Below, one piece after another: positions 40,714-48,100 of a DNA stretch of 51,563 nt (position 1 is its first letter; the number at the start of each line of letters is the position of its first letter). This DNA comes from Betaproteobacteria bacterium (lineage in GTDB: Bacteria > Pseudomonadota > Gammaproteobacteria > Burkholderiales > SG8-41). The notes beneath the pieces were generated by a model, which worked only from the letters and a program-made list of their open reading frames with translations, was not told the DNA's origin and ran no database searches. The position numbers were made by a program, and so were the translations under genes. The stretch lies in contig JACPTK010000093.1 in NCBI GenBank assembly GCA_016192825.1, positions 1 through 51,563 of the forward strand, in the 5' to 3' direction.

Positions 40714-40925
40714 CTAGCAGCCTGTCGGACTTGGCATTCCGACAGGCTGCTCACAGCAAAACCGCGTGCGGATTTCGAACGAAATACGGGATGACGACCC
40801 TTATTAGTCTCCAACGGGCACGCGAGCAGGCTGAAAATAAGGTTTTCACTGCCTTTTTCTTGCGTTCTGGCGCAGGCGGTTTTGCATTTAGGAGTTTGTC
40901 GGTCCTAAGTCCGACAAACTCCTAG
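40714..40925 (+). repeat. 212-bp composite palindromic element, copy 1
   Basis: CTAG, palindrome A (AGCAGCCTGTCGGA / TCCGACAGGCTGCT), inner arm GCAAAACCGCGTGCG (40756–40770), a core of about 100 bp, inner arm CGCAGGCGGTTTTGC (40871–40885), palindrome B (TAGGAGTTTGTCGG / CCGACAAACTCCTA), CTAG. Copy 2 at 45553 is its reverse complement with five substitutions and no indels. No credible gene lies inside. Confidence 0.9.
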
Positions 40926-40962
40926 CCCCGCCGCCAAGGTATGTGAGCCGAACGCGGGCGTT

Positions 40963-41724
40963 TCAGTGAACCAGACGTTGGCGCAGCCAGGCGCTCGCGC
41001 CATCCACGATCACGACGAGGGCCAGCATAGCGAGGATTACGGTCATCGCCTGCGGCTGCTGGAACAGCGAGAGGCTGAAGTAAAGCATCTGGCCCAGCCC
41101 GCCGGCGCCGACGACACCGAGGATCGCCGCCATACGGATGTTGATTTCCCAGCGGTAGAGCGTGTACGCGATCAGCTGCGGCACGACATTGGGCATGGTG
41201 CCGTAAAGAAAAGCGAGCGAGGCGGGACTGCCCGACAGCCGCAGCGCCCCGGCGGGCGCGGCCGGGGCGTTTTCGAGCGTCTCCGCGAACAGACGCCCGA
41301 TGACGCCCGTCGTGTGCCAGGCGAGCGCAAGCGTTCCCGCGAACGGGCCGAGCCCCGCTGCAATCACCATCAGCGCCGCCCACACGAGCTCGGGTATCGA
41401 TCGGAGAAAATTCAGGAGGAGCCGTGCCATCGCTCGCGGCACGACGCCGAAGCGCCCCGCGGCAGGCAGCGCGAGCAGCAGCCCGAGCACCGCCGCCAAC
41501 GCTGTTCCGATCGCGGAAATGGCGATGGTTTCGAGCGTGCCCTGCCCGATCCGCGACAAGTGCCCGGCGGAAAAATCCGGCGGAAAGAACGACACCACGT
41601 ATTTCCACATCTGCGCTTGCGCCTCGAGCGTGAGCAGCTGGCCGAGGTCAAGTGCAAGGTAAGCGAAGCTCGCCCAGGTCGCTGCGACCAGGCCCGCCAC
41701 GACCGCCCAGTGCGCGCCCCTCAT
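40963..41724 (-). CDS. phnE: Phosphonate-type ABC transporter permease (PhnE), second
   Basis: A 253-residue inner-membrane permease. MRGAHWAVVAGLVAATWASFAYL starts the first membrane segment, and RSIPELVWAALMVIAAGLGPFAGTLALAWHTTGVIGRLFAETLE is the cytoplasmic EAA loop region that contacts the ATPase. ATG 41724 overlaps the stop of the upstream permease (ATGA). The C-terminus is VDGASAWLRQRLVH. Together with the 275-residue permease it forms a heterodimeric channel. Confidence 0.88.
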   Translation of the reverse strand: MRGAHWAVVAGLVAATWASFAYLALDLGQLLTLEAQAQMWKYVVSFFPPDFSAGHLSRIGQGTLETIAISAIGTALAAVLGLLLALPAAGRFGVVPRAMARLLLNFLRSIPELVWAALMVIAAGLGPFAGTLALAWHTTGVIGRLFAETLENAPAAPAGALRLSGSPASLAFLYGTMPNVVPQLIAYTLYRWEINIRMAAILGVVGAGGLGQMLYFSLSLFQQPQAMTVILAMLALVVIVDGASAWLRQRLVH

Positions 41725-42548
41725 CCGGTCACCTTGCGCAGCAAGGCGCTGACGCCGTCCGCCAGCACCACCAGCAGCAGGAATGTAAGCAGGATCGTGC
41801 TCACCTCGCCGCCGTTCAGCATGCGCATCGAGAGCTCCATCTGCAGGCCAAGTCCGCCCGCCCCGACGAACCCCATGATGACGGAGGCGCGCACCGCGCA
41901 CTCCCAGCGGTACACCGAATAGGACACGAGCTCGGGCAGGGCAACCGGCCACATCCCGTAGCAGAATGCCGCGATCCGCCCGCCGCCCGCCTCCAGCAGC
42001 GCGGTCGCCGGACGCGTGTCATTGGATTCCAGGATTTCCGAATAGACCTTGCCCAGCATTCCGCCGTAGGTGACGCCGATTGCCAACACACCGGCGGCGG
42101 GCCCGAGTCCTACCGCGCGCACGAAAAGCAGGGCCCACACGATTTCCGGAATGCTGCGGAAAAACATCAGAGCGAACCGCGCCGGCATGCGCACCAGGCG
42201 CCCGGGCATCAGGCCGGGACCCGGGCCGATGCGCGAAATCGAGAGGCTGCGCGTTACGACCAGGGCGAGCGGCCACCCGATCAGAATCGCGAACGCCATG
42301 CCGGCGGTCGCGATGGCCAGCGTCTCGAATGTGGACTTGAGCACGAGTCCGAGAAAGTCCGGGGACGTTTCGAGCGGGAAGAACGTGCCCACGAACTTGA
42401 CGATGGTCGCGCGGCCGCGCTCGTCAAACAGGGCCGCCGGGTCGAACTCGGTGAGGCTGAAGCCCGGCCACAGGAGGGCGACGATGCAGACGGCCAGCAG
42501 CAGTCGCGGCGCCGCAGCGGGATCACGCAGTCGCGGAATCGAGTTCAT
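41721..42548 (-). CDS. phnE: Phosphonate-type ABC transporter permease (PhnE), first
   Basis: A 275-residue permease with about six membrane segments and the family loop FFRSIPEIVWALLFVRAVGLGPAAGVLAIGVTYGGMLGKVYSEILE. MGFVGAGGLGLQMELSMRM matches the same region of the other permease, showing ancient duplication. It lies 65 bp after phnC and overlaps the next permease by 4 bases. Confidence 0.88.
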   Translation of the reverse strand: MNSIPRLRDPAAAPRLLLAVCIVALLWPGFSLTEFDPAALFDERGRATIVKFVGTFFPLETSPDFLGLVLKSTFETLAIATAGMAFAILIGWPLALVVTRSLSISRIGPGPGLMPGRLVRMPARFALMFFRSIPEIVWALLFVRAVGLGPAAGVLAIGVTYGGMLGKVYSEILESNDTRPATALLEAGGGRIAAFCYGMWPVALPELVSYSVYRWECAVRASVIMGFVGAGGLGLQMELSMRMLNGGEVSTILLTFLLLVVLADGVSALLRKVTG

Positions 42549-42613
42549 GGCTAAGGGCTGGCGCGTGGGACGGACACGCGCGCGGAACTATCGCCGGCAT
42601 CCGCGTGCCGCGC

Positions 42614-43444
42614 TCAGGAAAACATGGGCCTGCGGCGCACGCCCGCCGGGACCGTTTCGAGCGTCTGATTGTCCTGCGTCGGAACCGTCCGCGATTCGGA
42701 CGCGTAGAGTTCCGCGAGCATGCCGTCGCTGACCCGCACCGGCGGCAGATCGAACACGATCTCGCCGGCCCGGACGCCGATGACCCGCGGAAACCGGTGC
42801 AGCGCGAGATCCACGGCGTGCAGGCTCGCGACCAGCGTCACGCCGCGCTCGATCGCTTCGCGGTTGAGCTCGCCGACCACCCGGTCCGACAGCGCGGGGT
42901 CCACCGCCGAGACCGGCTCGTCGGTTAGTATCAGGTCGGGCCGCTGGTAGAGCACGCGCGCTACCCCGACGCGCTGCAGCTGGCCGCCCGAGAGCTGGTC
43001 GCAGCGCTCGAACAATTTGTCCGCGATTTCCATCCGCGCCAGCATCCGCTCGGCGCCGGCGATATCCATCGGATAGACGAGCGAGGCGAGGCTTCTCCAG
43101 GCCGGCCACTGGCCGAGCCGTCCCGCCAGGACCGCGGTCACGACCCTCTGCCGTGGGGGTATGGGCGGTGCCTGGTGCACCATGCCGATCCGGCTCCTCA
43201 GCCGCCGCAGGTTTCCGCGGTCGAGCCGCCACGGGTCGGTATCGAGCACCCCGATGGTGCCCGACGACGGACGGAGCGCCGTGGCGAGTATGCGCAGCAA
43301 CGACGTCTTGCCGGCCCCGGACGGGCCGATGATGGCTACGCGCTCGCCCTTGCGAATCTCGCAGTCGAGGCGGCGGACGGCGCGAACGCCGTTCGGGTAC
43401 TCGAGGCTGACCTTGTTGAATTTGACGCTCAACCTGGCGTCCAT
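42614..43444 (-). CDS. phnC: Phosphonate-type ABC transporter ATP-binding protein (PhnC)
   Basis: A 276-residue ABC ATPase: Walker A GPSGAGKTS (about 40–48), signature LSGGQLQRVGVARVL, Walker B LILTDEP, and a switch His in SLHAVDLAL. Start ATG 43444, 22 bp after the phnD stop. It energises import through the two PhnE-type permeases encoded downstream. Confidence 0.92.
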   Translation of the reverse strand: MDARLSVKFNKVSLEYPNGVRAVRRLDCEIRKGERVAIIGPSGAGKTSLLRILATALRPSSGTIGVLDTDPWRLDRGNLRRLRSRIGMVHQAPPIPPRQRVVTAVLAGRLGQWPAWRSLASLVYPMDIAGAERMLARMEIADKLFERCDQLSGGQLQRVGVARVLYQRPDLILTDEPVSAVDPALSDRVVGELNREAIERGVTLVASLHAVDLALHRFPRVIGVRAGEIVFDLPPVRVSDGMLAELYASESRTVPTQDNQTLETVPAGVRRRPMFS

Positions 43445-47347: not shown

Positions 47348-47436
47348 ACCGTCCTGCGCCGAAGCACGTTGCAAAAACCCCCGAACATCAGTAAGATGGC
47401 GCCCTTTTTCCGATTCAGCCCCGGAGTTTACAGCAC

Positions 47437-47700
47437 ATGGCCAATATCGCATCCGCTCGAAAACGCGCGCGCCAGGCGGAAAAGCGCCGCCAGCACAACG
47501 CGGCGCTGCGCTCGGAGCTGCGCAGCGCGATCCGGAACGTGAGGAAAGCGATCGCCGCGGGGGACAAGAAGGCGGCGCGGGACGTGTTTACGCGCGCGAC
47601 CGGCGTGATCGACTCCATCGCGGACAAGCACATCATTCACAAGAACGCCGCGGCACGCCACAAGAGCCGCCTGTCGGCCAGAATCAAGGCGATGGCGTAA
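47437..47700 (+). CDS. rpsT: 30S ribosomal protein S20
   Basis: An 87-residue, very basic protein (MANIASARKRARQAEKRRQHNAALRSELRSAIRNVRKAI) matching S20, which binds 16S rRNA in the small subunit. ATG 47437 has CGGAG about 10 bases upstream. It is divergent from murJ. GGCGGCC just at its stop codon pairs with GGCCGCC at 47747, a weak stem without a U-tract. Confidence 0.97.
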   Translation: MANIASARKRARQAEKRRQHNAALRSELRSAIRNVRKAIAAGDKKAARDVFTRATGVIDSIADKHIIHKNAAARHKSRLSARIKAMA

Positions 47701-47813
47701 GGCGGCCTCCGTCAGGTCGACGGCAAGCAACCGGCGGCGTCGCGTCGGCCGCCTTGGAATAACCTCCGTACGATAATCGCGTTCAAGAAATCGCCGCCGC
47801 ACGGGCGACGGGC

Positions 47814-47896
47814 AGCGGTGTGTCGCCCGCCGGCACCGCAGATCAGGATGGCGGTGGCCTGCGAAAACCGGAACCCATAGTCCGACACACTGCTAG
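47814..47896. repeat. Type C dispersed repeat, full copy
   Basis: Terminal arms AGCGGTGTGTCG (47814–47825) and CGACACACTGCT (47883–47894) bracket GCAGATCAGGATGGCGGTGG and GCCTGCGAAAACC. Its terminal CTAG (47893–47896) is also the first CTAG of composite copy 3, so the two elements are joined at a shared tetranucleotide. Confidence 0.8.
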
Positions 47897-48100
47897 CAGC
47901 CTGTCGGACTTACCAGTCGGGACAGGCTGCTAAAAGCAAAACCGGCCGGATTTCCGCAAAATATCATTTCAAACAGCCTCAATCGCAGCACGAGCACGCA
48001 CTTTCTTCGCGGTTCGCGGCACTGAATGTTGTTCGACCTCATTCGGCTGGCCGGTTTTGCATAAGGAGCTTGTCGCATCGCAAGTCCGACAAGCTCCTAG
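47893..48100 (+). repeat. 208-bp composite palindromic element, copy 3 (different core)
   Basis: The organisation is as at 40714: CTAG, palindrome A (AGCAGCCTGTC / GACAGGCTGCT), inner arm GCAAAACCGGCC, core, inner arm GGCCGGTTTTGC, palindrome B (AGGAGCTTGTCG / CGACAAGCTCCT), CTAG. The core sequence is unrelated to copies 1 and 2, yet the inner arms remain perfectly complementary with compensating changes. The final CTAG supplies the stop of the DUF3579 gene. Confidence 0.88.

What the first reader, a model, noticed from the sequence alone, without database searches (positions are those of the whole stretch)
40714..48100. CTAG-bounded composite palindromic elements with a structurally conserved, sequence-variable core
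Three elements of 208–212 bp (40714, 45553, 47893) share one plan: CTAG, palindrome A, GCAAAACCG-type inner arm, core, complementary inner arm, palindrome B, CTAG. Copies 1 and 2 are 97–98% identical; copy 3 has an unrelated core but its inner arms changed together (GCGG to GGCCGG), preserving the stem. That points to selection or replication on a folded form, as DNA or RNA. The layout recalls REP/BIME elements moved by RAYT transposases, but I know no described family with this plan.
Basis: partly seen in the sequence, partly recalled or inferred. Interest (0 to 1): 0.78.

Follow-up and report, generated by a model that had tools for sequence, protein, structure and literature searches.

The report
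Hairpin-ended miniature transposons using IS1182 ends
The repeats are copies of a small, gene-less jumping element, present in many copies in this uncultured bacterium, that appears to borrow the enzyme of a known type of insertion sequence; its ends and inner arms look folded and are unusually well kept.

Summary
The draft genome (5.1 Mb) has 366 CTAG-tagged half-ends against 2 for the reversed pattern. I isolated 64 complete ~210-bp elements, 30 of them in an 841-kb sample. Their cores fall into 7 clusters.

They are not REP/BIME elements of a RAYT. Their outer ends (CTAG|[CG]AGNNTGTCGGACTT) are those of IS1182-family insertion sequences: a complete one in a relative, ISAzo2 of Aromatoleum, and remnants in this genome, some with the same hairpin-shaped end. 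In one clean case CTAG is a 4-bp target duplication: an element sits in a transport-receptor gene of a related MAG, and keeping exactly one 4-bp copy gives the reading frame. I read them as IS1182-mobilised MITEs; that the enzyme moves them is inferred.

Covariation in both hairpins and the inner arms is real (13 of 41 pairs; 5.2 in shuffles), but its cause is open. No autonomous element with the inner arms was found in 74 named loci, and several heavy carriers lack a clear IS1182 gene. A relative occurs in a MAG labelled Verrucomicrobiia.

The parts
40714..40925 (+). Element 1 (complete MITE, core cluster 0) including the CTAG at both ends
40716..40751 (+). Hairpin A of element 1 (13-bp stem AGCAGCCTGTCGG, 10-nt loop); its 5' half is the IS1182-type terminal repeat
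40756..40770 (+). Left inner arm of element 1 (GCAAAACCG...)
40871..40885 (+). Right inner arm of element 1 (...CGGTTTTGC)
40890..40923 (+). Hairpin B of element 1 (stem AGGAGTTTGTCGG, 8-nt loop)
45553..45764 (-). Element 2 (complete MITE, core cluster 0, inverted relative to element 1)
45555..45588 (+). Hairpin B of element 2
45727..45762 (+). Hairpin A of element 2
47893..48100 (+). Element 3 (complete MITE, core cluster 3, GGCCGG arms)
47895..47931 (+). Hairpin A of element 3
48064..48098 (+). Hairpin B of element 3
47814..47896 (-). Remnant of an IS1182-family left end (long-loop hairpin); shares the CTAG at 47893-47896 with element 3
21984..22044 (-). Remnant of an IS1182-family left end
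9198..9335 (+). Broken element: hairpin B plus part of a core like cluster 2 (by eye), running into an IS1182 left-end remnant (9293-9335)
9446..9485 (+). Solo hairpin A bounded by CTAG on both sides

Best explanation
These are miniature, non-autonomous transposons (MITEs). An IS1182-family DDE transposase, encoded by insertion sequences of the same lineage of bacteria, recognises the outer terminal repeat ([CG]AGNNTGTCGGACTT), frees or copies the element and joins it into a CTAG tetranucleotide, which is duplicated. Shown: high copy number, exact ends, ends shared with IS1182 elements, a 4-bp duplication at one clean insertion, IS1182 remnants with a hairpin-shaped end in this genome, and one composite in which a miniature element stands in place of the left end of a broken IS1182. 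Inferred: that this transposase moves them; that the hairpins arose by a second, inward-facing copy of the end; and that the inner arms (GCAAAACCG/CGGTTTTGC) are a further cis-acting or structural part. The arms are present in all seven core clusters although the cores diverged.
For: Copy number. Complete IS1182 in relative G056: both ends read CAGCCTGTCGGACTT inside CTAG, as hairpin A does, with a 457-aa transposase that scores 365 bits against NCBIfam IS1182 (cut-off 270). ISAzo2, a Polaromonas and a P. putida plasmid IS have nearly the same ends. In 10 IS1182 elements I looked for the best inverted ends with the same NTAN word outside; 9 of 10 came out as CTAG, with 10-14 of 14 end bases agreeing. 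Target duplication: in L241 the element lies in a TctC-type receptor gene; with one 4-bp copy the frame reads 321 aa (TctC, E 2.8e-57), with none or two it shifts, and 20 of 25 listed rows of related genes show no gap near the junction (my reading; 3 of the 25 are re-fetched duplicates). 47 of 64 own elements have CTAG/CTAG and 16 of the other 17 have one CTAG; flanks carry at most 0.18 bit per base (the finder favours CTAG-like ends). IS1182 left ends with a short-loop hairpin at 5 own loci (L081, L086, L090, L098, L100). Composite C51:18944-19749.
Against: No autonomous element with the inner arms was found: none among the element-like spans up to 4 kb in 74 named loci, and tblastn with two IS1182 transposases found nothing in those loci. 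PF05598 is found in only 8 of 18 relatives that carry the ends; the heavy carriers G008, G015, G019 and G021 have none. With NF033551, 15 of 19 genomes match but only 4 over the cut-off; G005, G008, G011 and G042 have none, and G015, G019 and G021 have only weak fragments. Several fragments lie at contig ends, so assembly loss is likely but unproven. The interior is not derived from an IS1182, unlike the deletion derivatives L074 and C8:13240-13509. One of the 10 IS1182 elements (L256) gave no CTAG pair. The duplication rests on one clean case, where the left copy reads CCAG; the nested insertion at C23:48503 gives only an approximate empty site.
Confidence: 0.8

Rival explanations
1. REP/BIME-like elements moved as single strands by a RAYT (Y1 transposase) that recognises the hairpins and the tetranucleotide beside them.
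For: Tetranucleotide at the foot of each hairpin, hairpin pairs in inverted orientation, high copy number, 8 Y1 matches in the genome.
Against: 7 of 8 Y1 loci have no such hairpins; the eighth, L067, has its own different palindrome beside the gene. The ends match IS1182 elements and one insertion shows a 4-bp duplication.
Confidence: 0.04
2. The elements spread as IS1182 MITEs but are now kept as folded RNA or DNA parts (terminators, mRNA ends, small RNAs), and selection on that function keeps the stems and the arms.
For: Covariation in stems and arms, strong folding, nearly constant length over diverged cores (60 of 65 cores are 124-131 bp).
Against: No Rfam family at gathering score in 40000-49000. 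Pairing may serve transposition or arise by templated correction. An element interrupting a gene shows that they also land where they do harm. No RNA data.
Confidence: 0.15
3. The matching arms are a mutational by-product: template switching inside quasi-palindromes copies one arm onto the other, without selection.
For: Known mechanism (recalled); two cluster-2 copies changed C-G to T-A on both sides.
Against: The letters GCAAAACCG stay nearly unchanged: 26 of 35 hairpin pairs, chosen without regard to the arms, have both arms exact, and the arm recurs in the Verrucomicrobiia-labelled MAG (that search asked for the left arm). Correction alone does not explain this.
Confidence: 0.25
4. Another, unseen DDE transposase with a CTAG target and similar ends moves them.
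For: Weak or absent IS1182 in several heavy carriers.
Against: The ends shared with IS1182 elements of several genera and the composite.
Confidence: 0.13

Closest known systems
IS1182-family insertion sequences, ISAzo2 branch (Aromatoleum aromaticum EbN1; Polaromonas pPNAP01; P. putida pKF715A)
   Same: Terminal repeat CAGCCTGTCGG[AG]CT and CTAG on both sides
   Different: About 1.55 kb with a transposase gene; by eye the terminal repeat of ISAzo2 and of the G056 element is not inside a hairpin (not folded), and no GCAAAACCG arm stands next to it
Bacterial MITEs derived from insertion sequences (general knowledge)
   Same: Short, non-coding, terminal repeats of an IS, target duplication, high copy number
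   Different: Terminal repeats sit inside near-perfect hairpins; a second, inner pair of arms, and cores not derived from the IS
REP/BIME and REPIN elements with RAYT (PMC2817692, PMC3116915: search listing only)
   Same: Inverted pair of hairpins, tetranucleotide at the foot, many copies
   Different: Tag is CTAG; GTAG and CGTC are the tags of PMC3733652 (title and start of abstract; a term search of its text found no CTAG or IS1182). Target duplication; no matching Y1 gene
ISPsy36 (IS1182) in Pseudomonas syringae (PMC8027508: passages)
   Same: IS1182 family with a 4-letter palindromic target repeat (GGCC)
   Different: Other target word; the CTAG named in that paper belongs to an IS630 element; no MITEs in the passages seen

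Membership tests
MITE | Short, non-coding, many similar copies with exact ends | tested here: met
   64 complete own copies, mostly about 208-213 bp; 366 half-ends
MITE | Target site duplication | tested here: met
   One clean case in L241; CTAG/CTAG in 47 of 64
MITE of IS1182 | Ends shared with an IS1182-family element | tested here: met
   L176, ISAzo2, Polaromonas, P. putida
MITE of IS1182 | Interior left over from the IS | tested here: not met
   Core and inner arms not seen (by eye) in the IS1182 ends printed; plain deletion derivatives exist beside them (L074, C8:13240-13509)
MITE of IS1182 | Moved in trans by an IS1182 transposase | not testable with these tools
   Needs a transposition assay
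REP/BIME with RAYT | A Y1 transposase gene flanked by the same palindromes | tested here: not met
   8 Y1 loci, 1 with elements nearby and that one with its own palindrome
REP/BIME with RAYT | No target duplication (recalled) | tested here: not met
   4-bp duplication in one clean case
Rfam RNA family | Match at gathering score | tested here: not met
   0 matches in 40000-49000

The most novel reading that the evidence does not exclude
The folded form is part of the transposition cycle: in this branch an IS1182-type transposase, or a host factor, acts on ends presented as hairpins or a cruciform. The inner arms hold the two hairpins at a fixed distance, so that a non-autonomous element with a freely drifting core of fixed length is kept mobile. 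The solo CTAG-hairpin-CTAG units (about 32 bp) would be the smallest mobile form.
Probability: 0.18. Interest if true: 0.72.

Novelty: new variant of a known kind. Interest (0 to 1): 0.45.

Why it matters
It gives a likely transposase family, a target and a duplication to a very abundant repeat that would otherwise be read as REP or regulatory RNA. If the hairpins and inner arms matter for movement, it would be a double-strand (DDE) counterpart of hairpin-guided transposition. The seven core clusters over one conserved frame are a natural mutagenesis of which parts such an element needs. The relative in a MAG of another phylum suggests transfer or long persistence, if the binning is right.

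Tried and rejected
RAYT/REP: searched and not supported. Rfam: nothing. Copy 1 in plasmid records: no match. Empty site for window copy 1 in G008/G009: element absent, but the spacer is too diverged. Empty sites around the IS1182 of P. putida and Polaromonas plasmids: none among the rows listed (25 of 60 records, 4 of 4); only counted copies of the ISAzo2 gene. Nested insertion in a mini-IS1182: insertion point near TAG, right end frayed, only approximate. Autonomous element with inner arms: none. Solo hairpins as independent transposons: 17 with CTAG on both sides in 5 of 8 genomes, 6 of them own, but at least four are A/B hybrids, which points to deletion between the two hairpins. Conservation of the arms might have come from my finder, which allowed 2 of 9 mismatches; a control without that condition gave 30 of 35 pairs with both arms; the other 5 are wrong pairings, broken copies or hairpin pairs of another kind. 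Literature: searches for the end and arm motifs showed nothing relevant (10 of 27 papers listed; 2 of 2); IS1182 with CTAG gave two papers, of which I saw passages of one. Searches are listings only. Not done: covariance-model search, RNA data, gene-orientation statistics. On checking I lowered the main confidence from 0.82 to 0.80 and raised the last rival from 0.12 to 0.13, because the duplication rests on one clean case.
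Full report
What is there. The three elements exist as described; copy 2 is inverted relative to copies 1 and 3. Each has CTAG, hairpin A (stem AGCAGCCTGTCGG), a GCAAAACCG arm, a core, the complementary CGGTTTTGC arm, hairpin B (AGGAGTTTGTCGG in copies 1 and 2, AGGAGCTTGTCG in copy 3) and CTAG.

How many. In the draft genome (G000, 5,107,374 bases, 123 contigs) CTAGNAGNNTGNCGG occurs 366 times, against 2 for the reversed pattern. Copy 1 finds 40 places of 164 bp or more; only 40 of 298 first-look candidates were scored, so this is a lower bound. 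I took 40 stretches (789,194 bases) and with the window had 840,757 bases. They hold 101 hairpins by my pattern, a few of them chance or of other kinds. Over all loci in hand there are 64 complete elements of the own genome, 30 of them in that sample, plus one from a relative. Extrapolated this is about 180 complete copies (inference; two of the sampled contigs, C19 and C8, and the window were not chosen blindly).

Anatomy. The 65 complete elements have cores in 7 clusters of 42, 10, 6, 4, 1, 1 and 1; 60 of 65 cores are 124-131 bp long. Comparing the cluster consensuses in both orientations with 300 shuffles each, pairs 0-5 (z 6.1), 3-4 (5.0), 1-5 (4.1), 0-1 (3.6) and, reversed, 2-4 (3.6) exceed all shuffles; a few more reach z 2.6-2.8. 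With 42 comparisons the weaker ones are doubtful. Copy 3 therefore belongs to a branch of its own (clusters 3 and 4), not to an unrelated kind. The arms are not an artefact of the finder: in the sample, 35 hairpin pairs 150-300 bp apart, taken without regard to the arms, include 30 with both arms and 26 with both arms exact; the other 5 are wrong pairings, broken copies or hairpin pairs of another kind.

Covariation. I aligned 48 of the 65: three were set aside as long or interrupted and I left out 14 near-copies of copy 1 (one row, L120, is from relative G011). With the three helices of copy 1 (41 pairs), 96.3% of cells pair. 13 pairs have changes on both sides against 5.2 in shuffles, and 0 of 500 shuffles reach any of the five measures; slid partners pair in 31-42% of cells. 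Helix 1 has 4 such pairs, helix 2 (the inner arms) 5, helix 3 has 4. RNAalifold finds the same three helices. The shuffle control does not remove relatedness, and templated correction of palindromes (recalled) would produce a similar pattern, so this shows kept pairing, not its cause.

What moves them. Y1 genes: 8 matches in the genome; only L067 has the elements within its locus, and its gene is flanked by a different palindrome. In contrast, locus L056 shows a CTAG-tagged end running into the first 28 codons of an IS1182-type transposase. The genome has a complete IS1182 (L071, 442 aa, 362 bits, cut-off 270) with CTAG ends of another branch, and many left ends and fragments. At five loci the left end is a short-loop hairpin (CTAGCAGCTTGTCGG...CCGACAAGCTGCT, with small variants) of the same shape as hairpins A and B. 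In relative G056 a complete 1557-bp IS1182 has the repeat CAGCCTGTCGGACTT at both ends inside CTAG. ISAzo2 (65% protein identity), a Polaromonas IS and a P. putida IS end nearly alike. For 10 IS1182 elements I sought the best inverted ends with the same NTAN word outside them: 9 gave CTAG, L256 did not. At C51:18944-19749 a miniature element (with a short internal duplication) stands in place of the left end of a broken IS1182 that still carries the C-terminal part of the transposase and a right end with CTAG. This is what exchange between like hairpins would give (inference).

Target. In L241 (MAG K_Offshore_80m_m1_178) an element sits inside a gene. With one 4-bp copy kept, the frame reads 321 aa and matches TctC at 2.8e-57; with none or two copies the frame breaks. 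Of 25 listed rows of related genes, 20 show no gap near the junction (my reading, 3 are re-fetched duplicates). The left copy there reads CCAG, taken as a mutated CTAG. In the own genome 47 of 64 elements have CTAG at both ends, 16 of the other 17 at one; outside it no base exceeds 0.18 bit (the finder favours CTAG-like ends). Element 3 and the IS1182 remnant beside it share one CTAG, as expected when one element inserts into the target of another.

Distribution. CTAGNAGNNTGTCGGACTT is in 31 of 100 genomes, the own one included (265 there, 0 in its reversed control; one reversed match in all 100); 25 of the 31 are of the same family. That MAG has 5 copies on 5 contigs; the two I looked at have the same plan. 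Misbinning is not excluded.

Against. No element with inner arms and a transposase was found. PF05598 is absent from 10 of 18 carriers; NF033551 is absent from 4 of 19 and over its cut-off in only 4. The interior is not IS-derived. So the mobiliser is inferred from ends and target.

Verdict. A large, hairpin-ended MITE family with IS1182-type ends and a CTAG target: a new variant of a known kind. The open and interesting part is why the inner arms and the element length are kept while the cores drift.

Noticed in passing
L234 around 2915-3115, L246 around 87-287, and further contigs of the same MAG (L301-L305): The same plan (hairpin A, GCAAAACCG arm, about 200 bp) in a MAG labelled Verrucomicrobiia (SJ186), with CTAG also on the inner side of hairpin A; 5 copies in that genome.
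   Followed up: partly
L040:2434-2629; G000:C51:111377-111594: Pairs of hairpins with stems like AGGATTTTGCCGG or AGGAATTTGCCGG about 200 bp apart without the GCAAAACCG arms: perhaps a second family.
   Followed up: no
window 21856-21889, 31917-31950, 37393-37426; C123:16381, 22635; C23:125840, 158413: Hairpins with stems such as AGGAATTTGCCGG or AGGAGTTTGCCGG that are not bounded by CTAG: another REP-like family or old remnants.
   Followed up: no
L067 around 1240-2260: A Y1 (RAYT-like) gene flanked on both sides by a palindrome with TGCAAGACCTGACCCC, a separate candidate REP/RAYT pair.
   Followed up: no
G000:C51:24852-25094: A cluster-2 element with a lone hairpin inside its core, apparently a collapsed insertion.
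   Followed up: no
L177:1231-1268: An IS1182 element inserted at the terminal CTAG of an end of this kind, so that the two share the CTAG.
   Followed up: partly
window 10722-21710: A 3662-aa open frame of repeated fibronectin-like and RCC1-like stretches (names recalled).
   Followed up: no
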